In this document: one piece after another, positions 3,901 through 8,421 of the stretch | How the letters are laid out: each line of letters begins with the position of its first letter | Numbering within the stretch: the stretch's first letter is position 1 | From: an uncultured Lachnospiraceae bacterium | GTDB taxonomy: Bacteria > Bacillota_A > Clostridia > Lachnospirales > Lachnospiraceae | Direction of reading: 5' to 3' | DNA length: 14,415 nucleotides | Assembly: GCA_900553635.1 (NCBI GenBank) | Contig: USDU01000042.1 | Coordinates: forward strand, 1-14,415 | Notes under the pieces: model-generated | Database searches by the model: none | What the model was told of the DNA's origin: nothing | Seen by the model: only the letters and a program-made list of their open reading frames with translations | Program-made: the position numbers and the translations under genes

Positions 3901-5265
3901 AAATCTTTCTCCTTTCTTCCACCCATAGTTGCGATTCAGATATGCTTTGATAATAGCGGCTCTCCCCCATGTAATCTTGCCATTCTCTGCCCGTATGCGA
4001 ATCAAAGTATCTGTATAAAGACTTGCCGGATATCTGCTTCCTGACAGAATCGCCTGCAATACAAGCGACGACATATTTGAAATGGGTGTTTTATCTTTCG
4101 ACTTCTGGTTCACGGTCTCATTCAGCATATCGCGAATTCCCAAATAATCCTGCTCTGCCCAGGCCGGTTTTACAATGCTGAGCCGCTCATAATGTTCCGC
4201 AATATTCTGCAATATCTTCCCAAATGAATTCATGTAAAAAAATCGTACCGATAAGCGAGCCGCATTGGGCGCCAACGCCAGGATATAAAATTTCTGTTCC
4301 GGATCCATCTCTGCGTTTTCCAGATATACCTTCGTATCTTCTTTTAAACTATCAAAAATATCCTTTAATTTTTTTTGATTATCTTTGGTCGGTCTCAGGA
4401 TATCAAAAAAGCACTTCTGATATTCTTCTTTTCCGTTTTCTGCCCAGTACACCACCATGGCGTCGCCCAGAGAAAAGGTATAGTCTCTCTGTGTCAAAAG
4501 ATAATTTAATGCTGTCGTATAGGCAAATTCCGCATATTTCCCCACCGGTGCATTGTAGCTCTGTTCTTTTCCATAAGACTCAAATGCCGGGGCATTAAAA
4601 GATACCAATGCCGCTCCGCTGGACTGCGCGCCCGGAACCCCTTTGATCGCTTTATGGATTCGGGAAATTTCAGTTTTCCTACCTGTAACAAGACAAAGCC
4701 CCTTACGTTCACCATCGTCTTGCTCCCGGTACTGTTCCCAACACGCCCGGATTTCCTCGTCCTCCTGCGCCTCCTGTCCTTCTACGCTGAAAATCAGGTT
4801 TCCGCCTTCTGTCAACTTCTCCCAGTTTTCTCGAATAACCGGATGCTGTTCTGCTTTTTGCGGATCCCACTTCTCAAAATAGGCCAAAATCGCGCGGGCT
4901 ATTTCTCCCTGTGCGTTTTTCAACACGCTCCGGTGCTTTTCTCTTGTGGCCTGAAAGCAATCAATAACACGCTGATTTGTTCCCTGCACATCAATTCCCA
5001 GCATATACTTGGAATTATCACACAGAAAATTAGCTGACACACCAGAAGAACGCGTCACCATTTCCGGGACAATCAGAGAAGCTGGTGCCCAGACGGTCTT
5101 TTTACCACGCATTTCTTCTATCTTCCGCGAAGTAACACCCAGAACGTCTCCATTTTTTGACAAATCAAGTTCGTATGACACTTTGGCCTGACACCAGCCC
5201 AGCCCGGATACTTTTCCCTGTCTTTCCAGATTCTCATATTGTTTTACCAATGCCTGCAAGATCAT
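3535..5265 (-). CDS. cas8c: Cas8c (Csd1), large Cascade subunit, type I-C
   Basis: 576-residue Cas8c/Csd1 beginning MILQALVKQYENLERQG, the usual family N-terminus, followed by conserved-looking blocks GLGWCQAKVSYEL and the SNMSSLVLQAILSGSRYPASL region in the second half. Cas8c recognises the TTC PAM and recruits Cas3. The frame opens at 5280, but the ATG at 5265 overlaps the cas5c TGA as ATGA and has GAGGTG five bases upstream, so I take it as the start. The last 121 codons are also read from an internal start as Cas11c (separate entry). No frameshift or truncation is seen. Confidence 0.96.
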   Translation of the reverse strand: MILQALVKQYENLERQGKVSGLGWCQAKVSYELDLSKNGDVLGVTSRKIEEMRGKKTVWAPASLIVPEMVTRSSGVSANFLCDNSKYMLGIDVQGTNQRVIDCFQATREKHRSVLKNAQGEIARAILAYFEKWDPQKAEQHPVIRENWEKLTEGGNLIFSVEGQEAQEDEEIRACWEQYREQDDGERKGLCLVTGRKTEISRIHKAIKGVPGAQSSGAALVSFNAPAFESYGKEQSYNAPVGKYAEFAYTTALNYLLTQRDYTFSLGDAMVVYWAENGKEEYQKCFFDILRPTKDNQKKLKDIFDSLKEDTKVYLENAEMDPEQKFYILALAPNAARLSVRFFYMNSFGKILQNIAEHYERLSIVKPAWAEQDYLGIRDMLNETVNQKSKDKTPISNMSSLVLQAILSGSRYPASLYTDTLIRIRAENGKITWGRAAIIKAYLNRNYGWKKGERFMGLKEECTDTAYVLGRLFSLLEAIQKEANPSITTTIRDRYFNSACATPASVFPVLIKLKNSHIKKLERDKGGAKIYYEKQLTDIMGRLEEFPKRLSLEQQGQFTLGYYHQQQKRYEKGEEK

Positions 5266-5924
5266 CGTAACACCTCGCATTCTCTTAAATCTATCACACC
5301 GTGACGCATAACCGCATGGAAAAACATGGGCTGAATATTTTCCGGATCGCTGTAATCCATATCGTATAACATAAGTCCCAAATCTTTTTCCGGCACTTCA
5401 TCATAAGCGGTATGGATCTCTTCTTCCTCGCAGAGAGCGAAATTCGCCGGAAATTCTCTGCATCCGAGGCACGGCATATGGAAGCACTCTCCCCTTCGCA
5501 ATCGCCGCATAATAATATCCTTAAATTTACCCGGATTATCCGACGCATTTGCCTTGTCTGTCATTTCAAAATGCGCCTCTATCACATAGGAAACATTACA
5601 CAACACCAGCGCTGCCCTCTGGACAATATCCTCTCTGGCGCTGATATACAACGGCTTGTCTGCGCCATTGTATGCCTGTAGCACACTGCTTGCCAGAATT
5701 TTGCTTTTTACTTCGTTCCGCCGTACACTTGTAAAACAAATAGGATTTTTCACATAGATTTTATCGATGACCCATCTCATACCTGGATGCCAATATACGG
5801 CGTCCAGGATGCCGCGGGCCGCCGAGGGGGTAATGACGTCATAGCTGTAGCGTTCTGTCTTAAGCTCCGGTCTTGAAAACAATGCGTAATCACCCCATAC
5901 ATGCACCTTTACTCCAATTCCCAT
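5262..5924 (-). CDS. cas5c: Cas5c (Cas5d), crRNA-processing endoribonuclease, type I-C
   Basis: 220-residue Cas5 of the catalytic type I-C kind, starting MGIGVKVHVWGDYALFSRPELK, with the family's PSAARGILDAVYWHP block (34-47). In type I-C there is no Cas6: Cas5c cuts pre-crRNA at the 3' base of the repeat hairpin and stays on the 11-nt handle. Y44 and H118 are candidates for the active-site Tyr and His of the family, by position only. A further ATG at 5945 lacks a ribosome site, whereas the ATG at 5924 has AAGGTG about eight bases upstream, so I chose 5924. It is the first gene of the cas5c-cas2 operon and overlaps cas8c by 4 bp. About 90 nt of 5' UTR precedes it. Confidence 0.95.
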   Translation of the reverse strand: MGIGVKVHVWGDYALFSRPELKTERYSYDVITPSAARGILDAVYWHPGMRWVIDKIYVKNPICFTSVRRNEVKSKILASSVLQAYNGADKPLYISAREDIVQRAALVLCNVSYVIEAHFEMTDKANASDNPGKFKDIIMRRLRRGECFHMPCLGCREFPANFALCEEEEIHTAYDEVPEKDLGLMLYDMDYSDPENIQPMFFHAVMRHGVIDLRECEVLR

Positions 5925-6020
5925 TTTATTTTCACCTTCTTTCATCGTTAAACTATTACTCTCATCTACAGTATCTGCGAGATAACGTTATATTTTGTTC
6001 TCCATTTATCTGATAATTAG

Positions 6021-6049
6021 ACTGTATCACATTTATTTCATAATTGCAA
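6021..6049 (-). promoter_or_regulatory. Promoter of the cas5c-cas8c-cas7-cas4-cas1-cas2 operon
   Basis: On the minus strand TTGCAA (6044-6049), a 17-base spacer and TACAGT (6021-6026) form -35 and -10 boxes. TGA just before the -10 makes it an extended -10. Start would be near 6014, about 90 nt before cas5c. A second fit exists further upstream: TATAAT at 6074-6079 with TTCAAT at 6097-6102, spacing 17. Two small palindromes lie in the leader (5972-5984 TATCT-GCG-AGATA, and 5982-5991 ATAACGTTAT). Which promoter is used needs 5'-end mapping. Confidence 0.65.
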
Positions 6050-6055
6050 CAAGAA

Positions 6056-6085
6056 TATTGATTCGTGGAATAAATTATAATTGAA
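6056..6085 (-). promoter_or_regulatory. Predicted Cascade operator: partial protospacer with TTC PAM, matching the pseudo-spacer
   Basis: Read on the minus strand from 6085, TTC (6085-6083, the type I-C PAM) is followed by AATTATAATTT (6082-6072). This is identical to the first 11 bases of the pseudo-spacer at 6160-6170. Matching continues imperfectly: positions 13, 15-18, 20, 23-25 and 27 agree, for 21 of 27. Position 12, one of the mismatches, is one of the every-sixth flipped-out guide positions that type I Cascade tolerates. The site overlaps the upstream TATAAT (6074-6079) and lies just upstream of the -35 at 6044-6049. A full 34-bp protospacer would reach 6049. Partial pairing should allow binding without Cas3 cleavage. 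Confidence 0.75.
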
Positions 6086-6097
6086 ATATTTATTGCA

Positions 6098-6127
6098 TTG
6101 AATAATTCATTTCAGTTGTGATATACT
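6098..6127 (+). promoter_or_regulatory. Plus-strand promoter of the pseudo-crRNA
   Basis: TTGAAT (6098-6103), an 18-base spacer, and TATACT (6122-6127) preceded by TGA, an extended -10. Transcription would begin near 6134, which is exactly the first base of the degenerate repeat. This promoter points against the cas genes and serves no protein-coding gene. It lies 13 bp from the predicted Cascade site, so bound Cascade might also affect it. Confidence 0.75.
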
Positions 6128-6133
6128 GTATGT

Positions 6134-6234
6134 GTCAGGAAATTCCTGTGGATTGAAATAATTATAATTTTTGCCACAAGGCAAGAGCGGCGGTACACTT
6201 TTTTATGGTGTACCGCCGTTTCCATTCTTCCTTT
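6134..6234 (+). ncRNA. creR: Candidate CreR-type Cas-regulating pseudo-crRNA (degenerate repeat + pseudo-spacer)
   Basis: The RNA runs antisense to the cas genes in the gap between cas3 and cas5c. Its first 26 nt (6134-6159) mimic a type I-C repeat: GT, a hairpin CAGGA-AAT-TCCTG, then TGGATTGAAAT. The last 12 bases, GTGGATTGAAAT, match the array repeat exactly and include the whole 11-nt Cas5c handle. The stem is shortened from 7 bp with a 5-nt loop to 5 bp with a 3-nt loop, so the repeat falls from 32 to 26 nt. The pseudo-spacer starts at 6160. Guide-like pairing extends to about position 27 (6186), and the terminator stem begins at 6188. Its target is the cas5c promoter region at 6056-6085. 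The base before the guide is handle sequence (AAT), not a TTC PAM, so the locus itself is not a target. CreA/CreR RNAs with this layout are known from other type I and V loci. That this one guides Cascade to repress cas5c-cas2 is inference. No second RNA or toxin gene like creT is evident. Confidence 0.8.
6188..6234 (+). terminator. Intrinsic terminator of the pseudo-crRNA
   Basis: An 11-bp perfect stem, CGGCGGTACAC at 6188-6198 with GTGTACCGCCG at 6208-6218, encloses a 9-nt loop. On the plus strand it is followed by a pyrimidine/T-rich tail (6219-6234, TTTCCATTCTTCC then TTT). This suits termination of the plus-strand small RNA. On the minus strand the hairpin follows the cas3 stop by 18 bp but has no U-tract, so cas3 readthrough into cas5c cannot be excluded. 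Confidence 0.65.
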
Positions 6235-6236
6235 AT

Positions 6237-8387
6237 TCAGATCAGTATCATTCCGCCCATTTCCACGTCCAGTTTCATTCCTGTATTTTCCAGATACTGC
6301 TCTTTATCCGTAAGCTCGTAAAAATCCTGTGCTCCGTCCACCACCAGACGCAGCATTCCCGCTCTGTACATCTTCTCAAACAGCATTTCTTTCCGACCGT
6401 CTCCCCGATAGACATTTACGCAATATTTTCCGGCCTTTCTCATCAATCCCTTTGTCAGTCCCTTTTGCCGAATTTCCTGCAAAAGCTCCTCTGCCTCCGG
6501 TTCTCTGTTTACATATACGGTAACTGAATTTTCTTCAATCAGATTAAATTCCCTGGCGACTGTTGCAAAATGGTAATCTCTGTCTTTGAATTTATCTAAA
6601 ATATCTTTTTTATCCAGGCTCCCGCCCCTGATGTGATAAAGTCTGCGGAAATATTCCGTAATATGCTCCAGGGTTGTAATATCTTTTCCCTCTGCCAACA
6701 GACTTTTTGTCGTATCGATCTGCTGCTGTTGTCCCGGTATGTGTTCTTTGTCCTCCCATTGAAATATATGGACCACACTCTCTTTTTTATCTCTGTTCCC
6801 ATTTCGATTGCAGCGTCCTGCTGCCTGAATAATGGAATCCACACTGGCAAGTTCCCGATATACAGACTTAAAATCCAAATCTACTCCCGCCTCTACCAGA
6901 CTTGTGGAAATAACGATACATTTTTTATCCTTCTCCTTTATCCTGCTGCGAATTTCATTCAGGACTCTCCTTCTGTGTAACGGATACATGCTGGTCGATA
7001 AATGATAGATCCCCTCGCCCCGCAGCTGTTCATAAAGTCTCTGCGCTCTTTTCCGTGTATTAACAATACACAGTGCCTGTCCCTCCTGACACAGACTTTC
7101 TATCATATTCTCTTCCGTTACCGTTCCCATATTCTGATAAGTAACTCTTTCAAAAAATTGAAACTGTTCCTCTCTTCTTGGACATAATTCTCTGACCGTC
7201 TGTTTTCCATGAAAAAACGGAAGCAACGCCGGCTGTGTCGCCGTACACAATACGATGCTGGCTCCATATCGCTGCAGCAATTCCTCCATGATTGCAATAC
7301 ACGGCTTTAAATAATTTGTCGGAAGCATCTGTGCCTCATCAAATATAATCACACTGTTTGCAATATTATGCAGCTTCCGGCATTTCGATGATTTATTGGC
7401 ATACAGAGATTCAAAAAACTGGACATTTGTAATCACCACTATCGGTTTATCCCAGTTTTCCGCCGCCAGCTGCATCGGTTTAAATTCCTCTGAGCTTTCA
7501 TAATCCACATTGCTGTGATTTTCCAATACATTTTCATTCCCCAGTATTTCACGAAATACCTGTGCATTCTGTTCAATAATACTTGTATAGGGAATGACAT
7601 AGATGATCCGATCCATCTGATTTTTCACGGCATGCTGCAATGCAAATGCCATCGAAGAAATCGTTTTTCCTCCACCGGTAGGCACCGTAAGTTGAAATAA
7701 CCCCTTATATGATTTGCCCTGCTCCAGACAATTTCTGAGAATCTCACTTCGTCTGCCGTTGATGGTTCTATCGTCCCAATCTTCAAGCCATGTAGCTATA
7801 TGCTCTTTGAACCTGAGTAAAAGATTTTCCATATTCTCCCCGGAATCTCTTTGAGCTGCCCCGCCACTCATGAATTGTTCCGTATCAAGGAAATCTGCAT
7901 CTACCAGACAGGAGTATAGCATACAGATAAAGGTACTCAATGAGAAATCAAAATCCGCCACCTGTTCCGGCGCAAATGGCTCCGTAGTGATTTTCGGAAT
8001 CTCTATTTCTTTTTTATATTCGCTGTAATCACAAACCTTTTTTTCAAGTCTGCCCAACAGGCTGGCGGATACTCCTTTTCTCCCGCAATCCGGAAGTCCG
8101 GCATGGTGTCCGGCGATACAATAGCTCATCAGGCTATAATATGCTCCCAATTCATTGCTTACCTGCGCCCCTGCCGTAGAGTGATCCACGCGCAGATCCG
8201 GATTCTCCTGAATTTTACGCTGGAATTCCGATGAATACTTCCCTATATCGTGAAGTAATCCGCAGTAATATCCCCAGTCTGCTGAGCCGAATTTTGCGGC
8301 AAACTTTTCAGCAAGCTTTGCTGTTCCCTGTAAATGTTCTTTTACCGATTGTTTCCTGCTCTCCGTCAGATGTGCATAATAATCCAT
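6237..8387 (-). CDS. cas3: Cas3 helicase-nuclease, type I-C
   Basis: 716-residue fusion of HD nuclease and superfamily 2 helicase, the standard order. HD domain residues are H18 (VKEH), H46-D47 (LLHDIGK), H69, H94-H95 (AGHHAGLP) and D164. The helicase shows Walker A VPTGGGKT (235-242), the DEAQ box (350-353, IIFDEAQ), a TAT motif (382-384), STSLVEAGVDLDF and the arginine-rich IIQAAGRCNRNG motif VI. Cas3 is recruited by target-bound Cascade to nick and degrade DNA. The frame is open to 8414, but the ATG at 8387 has GGGGGA four bases upstream while the earlier ATG has none. cas3 is separated from the remaining cas genes by a 312-bp gap with its own promoters, so it can be regulated apart from Cascade. 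Confidence 0.97.
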   Translation of the reverse strand: MDYYAHLTESRKQSVKEHLQGTAKLAEKFAAKFGSADWGYYCGLLHDIGKYSSEFQRKIQENPDLRVDHSTAGAQVSNELGAYYSLMSYCIAGHHAGLPDCGRKGVSASLLGRLEKKVCDYSEYKKEIEIPKITTEPFAPEQVADFDFSLSTFICMLYSCLVDADFLDTEQFMSGGAAQRDSGENMENLLLRFKEHIATWLEDWDDRTINGRRSEILRNCLEQGKSYKGLFQLTVPTGGGKTISSMAFALQHAVKNQMDRIIYVIPYTSIIEQNAQVFREILGNENVLENHSNVDYESSEEFKPMQLAAENWDKPIVVITNVQFFESLYANKSSKCRKLHNIANSVIIFDEAQMLPTNYLKPCIAIMEELLQRYGASIVLCTATQPALLPFFHGKQTVRELCPRREEQFQFFERVTYQNMGTVTEENMIESLCQEGQALCIVNTRKRAQRLYEQLRGEGIYHLSTSMYPLHRRRVLNEIRSRIKEKDKKCIVISTSLVEAGVDLDFKSVYRELASVDSIIQAAGRCNRNGNRDKKESVVHIFQWEDKEHIPGQQQQIDTTKSLLAEGKDITTLEHITEYFRRLYHIRGGSLDKKDILDKFKDRDYHFATVAREFNLIEENSVTVYVNREPEAEELLQEIRQKGLTKGLMRKAGKYCVNVYRGDGRKEMLFEKMYRAGMLRLVVDGAQDFYELTDKEQYLENTGMKLDVEMGGMILI

Positions 8388-8421
8388 TGAATTCCCCCAT
8401 ATATGAATCGTCATTTTTTAT

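What the first reader, a model, noticed from the sequence alone, without database searches (positions are those of the whole stretch)
6098..6234. Hidden pseudo-crRNA gene inside the type I-C cas locus: a CreR-type autoregulator
Between cas3 and cas5c, on the strand opposite all cas genes, a complete small-RNA gene is visible. It has an extended -10 promoter (6098-6127) placed to start at 6134, a 26-nt degenerate repeat, a pseudo-spacer and a terminator hairpin (6188-6218). The degenerate repeat keeps GT at the 5' end, a compensated but re-sequenced and shortened hairpin, and an exact 12-base match (GTGGATTGAAAT) to the array repeat covering the entire Cas5c handle. The stem bases differ from the array repeat but still pair, which suggests selection on structure. 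It would prevent loss by recombination with the array. Type I-C repeats differ from those of the loci where CreA/CreR were first described, so this instance looks undescribed.
Basis: partly seen in the sequence, partly recalled or inferred. Interest (0 to 1): 0.95.

Follow-up and report, generated by a model that had tools for sequence, protein, structure and literature searches.

The report
CRISPR guide RNA repressing own cas
Inside this bacterium's CRISPR locus lies one disguised CRISPR repeat followed by a short guide that matches DNA just upstream of the neighbouring cas genes, so the small RNA predicted to come from it would likely make the CRISPR complex turn down its own production; the same arrangement recurs in many related loci.

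Summary
At 6134-6159 (+), between cas3 and cas5c of a type I-C locus, lies a degenerate repeat with the exact array handle, a predicted promoter before it and a strong hairpin after it. The pseudo-spacer (from 6160) matches the opposite strand at 6082-6051 with an 11-nt perfect seed behind a TTC PAM, next to a predicted promoter of cas5c. Of 80 related loci, 35 carry such an element with its own TTC-seed self-target. Seeds differ between loci, yet mismatches cluster at positions 6, 12 and 18, the periodicity known for type I Cascade (recalled). Best reading: a CreR-type autoregulator of type I-C, with one repeat and a guide cut short by the terminator, so that Cascade would bind without cutting. 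Transcript, processing and repression are not shown. CreRs are in print for I-B, I-E and V-A; one key survey (Shmakov 2023) was not readable here, so novelty for I-C is provisional.

The parts
6098..6127 (+). predicted promoter of the small RNA: TTGAAT (6098-6103), 18 nt, extended -10 TG-A-TATACT (6119-6127)
   Evidence: in 26 of 36 elements scored the best predicted -10 ends 19-31 nt before the handle
6134..6159 (+). degenerate (pseudo-) repeat GT-CAGGA-AAT-TCCTG-TGGATTGAAAT
   Evidence: similar ones in relatives
6136..6148 (+). 5-bp hairpin of the pseudo-repeat, in the same register as the 7-bp array-repeat hairpin
   Evidence: z -0.9 alone; family alignment
6149..6159 (+). 11-nt 5' handle expected after a Cas5c cut between 6148 and 6149 (cut site inferred; handle length recalled)
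   Evidence: identical to the array repeat
6160..6186 (+). pseudo-spacer (guide); nt 1-11 match the target perfectly, 16 of the first 18
6169..6186 (+). second hairpin inside the pseudo-spacer (UUUUGCC-ACAA-GGCAAGA), function unknown
   Evidence: p 0.003 for the window
6187..6219 (+). 13-bp hairpin, likely terminator and 3' cap of the RNA
   Evidence: z -7.8
6083..6085 (-). PAM TTC of the self-target
6051..6082 (-). partly matching protospacer (self-target): AATTATAATTTATTCCACGAATCAATATTCTT
6021..6049 (-). predicted promoter of the cas5c operon: TTGCAA (6049-6044), 17 nt, TACAGT (6026-6021); one base separates it from the protospacer end
   Evidence: similar geometry in relatives
6074..6102 (-). 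alternative, lower-scoring predicted promoter TTCAAT-17-TATAAT, its -10 inside the seed
   Evidence: second-best site
5262..5924 (-). cas5c, first gene downstream of the target (220 aa; start at 5924 rather than 5945)
   Evidence: TIGR01876; most listed close homologues are 220 aa
3535..5265 (-). cas8c/csd1
   Evidence: TIGR01863
2623..3534 (-). cas7c/csd2
   Evidence: TIGR02589
6237..8414 (-). cas3, upstream of the element
   Evidence: TIGR01587 and TIGR01596
1..466 (-). CRISPR array, 32-nt repeats (edge of window)

Best explanation
The plus-strand element 6098-6219 is predicted to be a small-RNA gene whose RNA, likely cut by Cas5c, would guide the locus's own type I-C Cascade to a TTC-flanked, partly matching site at 6082-6051 beside the predicted cas5c promoter and so likely repress the cas5c-cas8c-cas7-cas4-cas1-cas2 operon. 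Shown by sequence: the pseudo-repeat with intact handle, the seed-PAM match, and its recurrence and coevolution in relatives. Inferred: transcription from about 6134, termination at 6187-6219, a Cas5c cut at 6148/6149, loading into Cascade, and repression by keeping RNA polymerase off the promoter. Binding without cutting is expected, because pairing fades near nt 18, the terminator stem begins near guide nt 26-28, and a type I-C system in Xanthomonas needed at least 27 matching bases for killing (PMC8406640, abstract and passages). When array crRNAs or anti-CRISPRs draw Cascade away, cas expression would rise (inferred from the published CreR model).
For: Seed-PAM match: an 11-nt run behind TTC; the other 725 TTC sites of the window reach at most 4. 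Null: 4 of 20,000 dinucleotide shuffles of the gap reach 11. Family: 35 of 80 Cas5c-selected loci hold a solitary handle plus TTC-seed self-target; 32 of the 42 loci with a cas3-cas5 gap of at least 190 nt hold it in the gap (cut-off chosen after seeing the gaps); joint handle-plus-seed scans give 0 hits in 188,028 bp of cas5-cas8 coding DNA, which is not composition-matched. In 28 of 31 elements tested the match beats all 300 shuffles of its region. With sites picked by identity alone, without PAM or position rule, 24 of 29 are the same sites and 24 of 29 have TTC, against 23 of 232 in cross-locus controls. In those 24 pairs nt 1-11 hold 16 mismatches, 13 at position 6; positions 6, 12 and 18 hold 45 of 68 in nt 1-18. 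34 of 35 eleven-nt seeds are distinct (34 loci and the window). In 18 of 20 sense-class elements the best predicted promoter has its -35 at +20 to +37 from the protospacer start; in 10 of 15 opposite-class elements the protospacer overlaps the best predicted -10.
Against: No transcript data. The promoters are consensus predictions; the main cas promoter matches 8 of 12 consensus bases (my count) and was not listed by the simple scan. The T-tract of the terminator is poor. The window's pseudo-repeat hairpin is not significant alone. In the window the protospacer abuts the -35 instead of covering it, so activation is not excluded. 10 of 42 wide-gap loci lack the element in the gap. In one search a guide from another locus scored as well as the own guide in 4 of 31 loci (L005, L013, and the near-copies L031/L034), and 3 of 31 did not beat all shuffles. 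No close copy of the window's own gap was found in 5 congeneric genomes, only one of which has a near Cas5c, 76%, so conservation of this exact guide is untested.
Confidence: 0.88

Rival explanations
1. The RNA guides Cascade to the same site, but binding upstream of the -35 activates the cas promoter instead of repressing it.
For: In the window and 9 other sense-class elements the predicted -35 begins at +32 to +37, just past the 32-nt protospacer, where activators can bind.
Against: In 8 of 20 sense-class elements the -35 starts within the protospacer (+20 to +28), and in 10 of 15 opposite-class elements the protospacer overlaps the -10, which fits occlusion. I know of no natural Cascade activator (recalled).
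Confidence: 0.05
2. It is the antitoxin RNA of an addiction module (CreTA or CrePA): the target promoter drives a toxin and not only cas genes.
For: 13 relatives carry a DUF3990 gene (PF13151 confirmed in the 10 tested) and a second small gene between target and cas5. Stand-alone elements beside small hydrophobic peptides exist.
Against: In the window the 96-nt leader 6020-5925 holds only two 5-codon ORFs (MENKI, MRVIV) besides the cas5c frame and an 8-codon GTG frame running into it. An RNA toxin there is not excluded.
Confidence: 0.05
3. It is a decayed relic of a CRISPR repeat, with a chance or no longer used match.
For: A single, shortened repeat; the stem alone is not significant.
Against: The handle is intact, the seed match is rare by chance, and many loci with different seeds keep guide-target pairing with six-base periodicity of mismatches.
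Confidence: 0.02
4. It is a phage-type RNA anti-CRISPR (Racr): a repeat mimic that ties up Cas proteins and needs no target.
For: A solitary repeat downstream of a predicted promoter; a type I-C Racr is known (PMC10651486, passages).
Against: It lies in the host cas locus and has a PAM-flanked self-target; two exact patterns found no copy in the viral collection, though only exact forms were searched.
Confidence: 0.01

Closest known systems
CreR (cas-regulating RNA) of types I-B, I-E and V-A
   Same: crRNA-like RNA with limited complementarity to the cas promoter; autorepression by the effector is the action (PMC13131331 and PMC12737573, passages; PMC12948488, one passage)
   Different: type I-C; processing expected from Cas5c and not Cas6; one repeat with no second repeat; guide ends in a terminator hairpin; an internal hairpin in the guide
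CreA of CreTA/CrePA addiction modules
   Same: degenerate ectopic repeat plus a partly matching spacer that guides Cascade to a promoter (PMC9458426, abstract; PMC12737573, passages)
   Different: in the window the genes downstream of the target are cas genes and no toxin gene was found
Standalone repeats and mini-arrays of Shmakov et al. 2023 (content recalled; not held)
   Same: computational class of cr-like RNAs with partial matches to cas promoters
   Different: could not compare; type I-C coverage not verified
tracr-L of Streptococcus pyogenes Cas9 (a reference title; details recalled)
   Same: RNA-guided effector represses its own cas promoter
   Different: unrelated RNA type and effector class
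Racr RNA anti-CRISPRs, RacrIC1
   Same: solitary type I-C repeat-like RNA (PMC10651486, passages)
   Different: phage-borne, no target needed, blocks immunity

Membership tests
CreR | crRNA-like: repeat-like part followed by a spacer-like part, outside the array | tested here: met
CreR | partial, PAM-flanked complementarity to the cognate cas promoter region | tested here: met
   TTC plus 11-nt seed at 6085-6051; the promoter itself is predicted
CreR | linked to a cas locus of the same type | tested here: met
   Cas3, Cas5c, Cas8c, Cas7, Cas4 and Cas1c, Cas2 by NCBIfam; array
CreR | is transcribed, loads the effector and represses cas genes | not testable with these tools
   needs RNA and reporter experiments
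two-repeat mini-CRISPR form of CreR/CreA | second repeat after the spacer | tested here: not met
   a hairpin with no handle follows; one or two repeats are reported for CreTA (PMC9458426 abstract)
CreTA/CrePA | toxin gene or toxic RNA under the targeted promoter | tested here: inconclusive
   only 5-codon ORFs in the leader; RNA toxin not excluded
Racr | encoded by a virus or mobile element, not in a cas locus | tested here: not met
   embedded between cas3 and cas5c

The most novel reading that the evidence does not exclude
Type I-C loci carry their own class of self-braking guide: one degenerate repeat and a structured guide whose internal hairpin and terminator cap hold pairing to the first 11-18 bases, making it a bind-only guide by design; in relatives the same brake also holds a DUF3990 toxin-like cassette in the cas operon, so anti-CRISPR attack would release new Cas proteins and the toxin together.
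Probability: 0.35. Interest if true: 0.82.

Novelty: new member of a known kind. Interest (0 to 1): 0.65.

Why it matters
[quoted passage not shown] If right, it regulates itself by RNA through a single-repeat guide, so RNA-guided autorepression reaches a subtype that processes crRNA with Cas5c instead of Cas6. The family gives natural guide-target pairs that show, by evolution alone, which bases Cascade reads (1-5, 7-11, then fading, with 6, 12 and 18 free) and how a guide is kept from triggering cleavage. It also suggests how cas expression could rise when an anti-CRISPR removes Cascade.

Tried and rejected
Rfam at gathering threshold: 0 matches in the window. Plasmid megablast of cas3-cas5c: none. 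Two exact patterns in viral contigs: 0 and 0, so no phage decoy of those forms. Exact pseudo-repeat pattern in 397 family genomes: 3 hits, reversed-pattern control 0. DNA search of the gap in 5 congeneric genomes: none; in 397 family genomes 10 weak hits, of which 5 hold an element with a TTC-seed target (two repeat the elements of L013 and L008 already counted).

First idea, that the seed covers the cas -10 box (TATAAT at 6079-6074), was demoted: the family comparison favours TTGCAA-17-TACAGT just past the protospacer. The idea that handle variants follow the local array repeat was tested and not supported: of 25 compared (24 loci and the window) 11 are identical, 1 shares a variant, 13 differ. 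A stem test of the pseudo-repeat gave only a modest excess over shuffles (mean 4.39 against 3.32 pairs, 31 elements). L078 has a solitary handle without a target. L034 (near-copy of L031) was dropped from the position counts; L079 (copy of L064) and the five other tier-2 loci (L017, L020, L026, L042, L069) were not in them.

Full report
What was checked. The window holds a type I-C cas locus on the minus strand: cas3 (6237-8414), cas5c (5262-5924), cas8c, cas7, cas4, cas1c (NCBIfam) and cas2, with a 32-nt-repeat array at 1-466. The element lies in the 312-nt gap between cas3 and cas5c, on the opposite strand. The pseudo-repeat, the 12-base handle match, the extended -10 and the downstream hairpin are there at the stated coordinates.

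The missing half: a target. The bases after the handle (from 6160) match the minus strand from 6082 down: AATTATAATTT, 11 of 11, then 19 of 24, preceded by TTC. TTC is a functional type I-C PAM in Xanthomonas (PMC8406640, abstract and passages). Of 726 TTC sites in the window, the other 725 reach a run of at most 4. In 20,000 dinucleotide shuffles of the gap, 4 reach 11. The protospacer ends at 6051; a predicted promoter TTGCAA-17-TACAGT begins at 6049 and points at cas5c. The predicted small-RNA promoter starts 12 bases beyond the PAM on the other side, so bound Cascade would sit between the two divergent promoters and might repress both (inference).

Relatives. A Cas5c scan of GTDB-species contigs confirmed 215 loci and kept the best 80, so the sample is the window's nearest relatives. 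One search lists solitary handles within 1 mismatch, on the strand opposite the cas genes, in 30 of 80 loci; its array mask hid L020 and L072. Thirty loci (those without L079, a copy of L064, plus L072) and the window gave 31 elements to test for a TTC-seed self-target. 28 of 31 beat all 300 shuffles of their own region; L072 gives p 0.010, L036 p 0.093, and L078 has none. A looser joint scan of the 51 other loci adds L017, L020, L026, L042, L069 and L079. In all, 35 of 80 loci carry element plus target (L036 and L072 counted, L078 not): 32 of 42 with a cas3-cas5 gap of at least 190 nt (inside the gap; cut-off chosen after seeing the gaps), one wide-gap locus (L026) with it upstream of cas3, 2 of 33 with a narrower gap (also upstream of cas3: L042, L049), and 0 of 5 without cas3 on the contig. 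The element thus seems to track the promoter of the operon. Joint scans (handle within 1 mismatch and core seed at least 9 of 10; within 3 and 10 of 10) find 0 in 188,028 bp of cas5-cas8 coding DNA, a control that is not matched in composition.

Coevolution with a Cascade signature. One search gives mismatches over 29 pairs: none at 1-5, 18 at position 6, 2 at 7, none at 8-10, 5 at 11, 23 at 12, and near-random after 18. Because that site choice tolerated mismatches at 6, 12 and 18, I repeated it with plain identity over nt 1-18 and no PAM rule: 24 of 29 pick the same site and 24 of 29 have TTC, against 23 of 232 cross-locus picks; the five that differ are L005, L016, L019, L027 and L028. In the 24, 13 of the 16 mismatches in nt 1-11 are at position 6 (binomial p about 1e-11) and 45 of 68 in nt 1-18 are at 6, 12 or 18; loci are related, so the p-values are optimistic. 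Type I Cascade flips out every sixth guide base (recalled). 34 of 35 seeds are distinct (34 loci and the window), and the target lies on either strand (20 sense, 14 opposite without L034 and L079), so pairing has been kept while letters changed.

How it likely works. RNA from about 6134 to 6219 would be cut by Cas5c at the base of the hairpin, leaving the 11-nt handle, and load Cascade. The guide is short: pairing fades by nt 18, and the strongest downstream stem begins at spacer nt 11-30 in 35 of 36 elements scored (L078: nt 40; window nt 26 by that script, 28 by RNA folding). A Xanthomonas type I-C system needed at least 27 matching bases for killing, so binding without cleavage is expected. 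Repression is inferred from position: in 10 of 15 opposite-class elements the protospacer overlaps the best predicted -10; in 8 of 20 sense-class elements the -35 starts inside the protospacer and in 10 (the window among them) just past it; L015 and L018 have it farther off.

An unexplained layer. In the window and several sense-class relatives the guide itself holds a hairpin (window 6169-6186). In 20 sense-class elements spacer nt 5-28 folds better than shuffles when combined (p 5.8e-5), in 14 opposite-class elements not (p 0.17); 11 of 150 sampled array spacers reach p < 0.05. In seven loci chosen by eye for one register (L005, L006, L008, L013, L015, L018, L026) the stem shows paired changes: 3 of 6 pairs with changes on both sides, 97.6% of cells paired, against at most 52.4% for slid controls. 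It may hold the R-loop to the seed (inference).

Literature. [quoted passage not shown] Searches for CreR, cas-regulating RNA, crRNA-like with type I-C, and standalone repeats or mini-arrays listed no title or abstract start that names a type I-C CreR; only the passages cited were looked at. Shmakov et al. 2023 (title seen in the reference list; content recalled) was not held and may include type I-C, so I file this as a new member of a known kind.

Host. No close copy of the gap itself was found.

Noticed in passing
L003, L005, L006, L008, L010, L011, L013, L015, L018, L019, L020, L027, L035 between element and cas5: In 13 loci the targeted region is followed by a DUF3990 ORF (PF13151 in all 10 tested; L011, L013, L015 judged by eye) and a second roughly 150-aa ORF without a family above cut-off (L003, L006 tested), then cas5; in L015 a transposase-like ORF intervenes. 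A toxin-like cassette (toxin role recalled, not tested) would share the same brake. Four more loci (L022 partial, L023, L025, L026) have the ORFs without an element in the gap.
   Followed up: partly
L084:1500-1772 and L088:1261-1550: Solitary pseudo-repeats away from cas genes, each with a TTC plus 10/10 core-seed self-target, upstream of a 29-aa hydrophobic peptide (Hol_Tox: E 0.00015, 21.9 bits, below the 23.3 cut-off, for L084; E 0.06 for L088): possible type I-C crRNA-guided toxin modules. G152 has Cas5c at 75% identity; G336 only a distant Cas5.
   Followed up: partly
L090:1500-1620: A further stand-alone element with a TTC-seed target and no obvious protein gene under it; possibly an RNA toxin.
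   Followed up: no
window 6169-6186 and seven relatives (alignment A1): Hairpin inside the pseudo-spacer, with paired changes in the seven relatives; function unknown.
   Followed up: partly
L012:3059-3280: The gap holds only a 73-aa remnant like the second cassette ORF and no element, suggesting decay of the cassette.
   Followed up: no
L078:3518: Solitary handle upstream of cas3 with a promoter-like site and hairpin but no TTC-seed target in the regions tested.
   Followed up: no
window 5924-5945: The cas5c start at 5945 is probably too early: most listed close homologues are 220 aa and a ribosome-binding-like AAGGTG precedes the ATG at 5924.
   Followed up: yes
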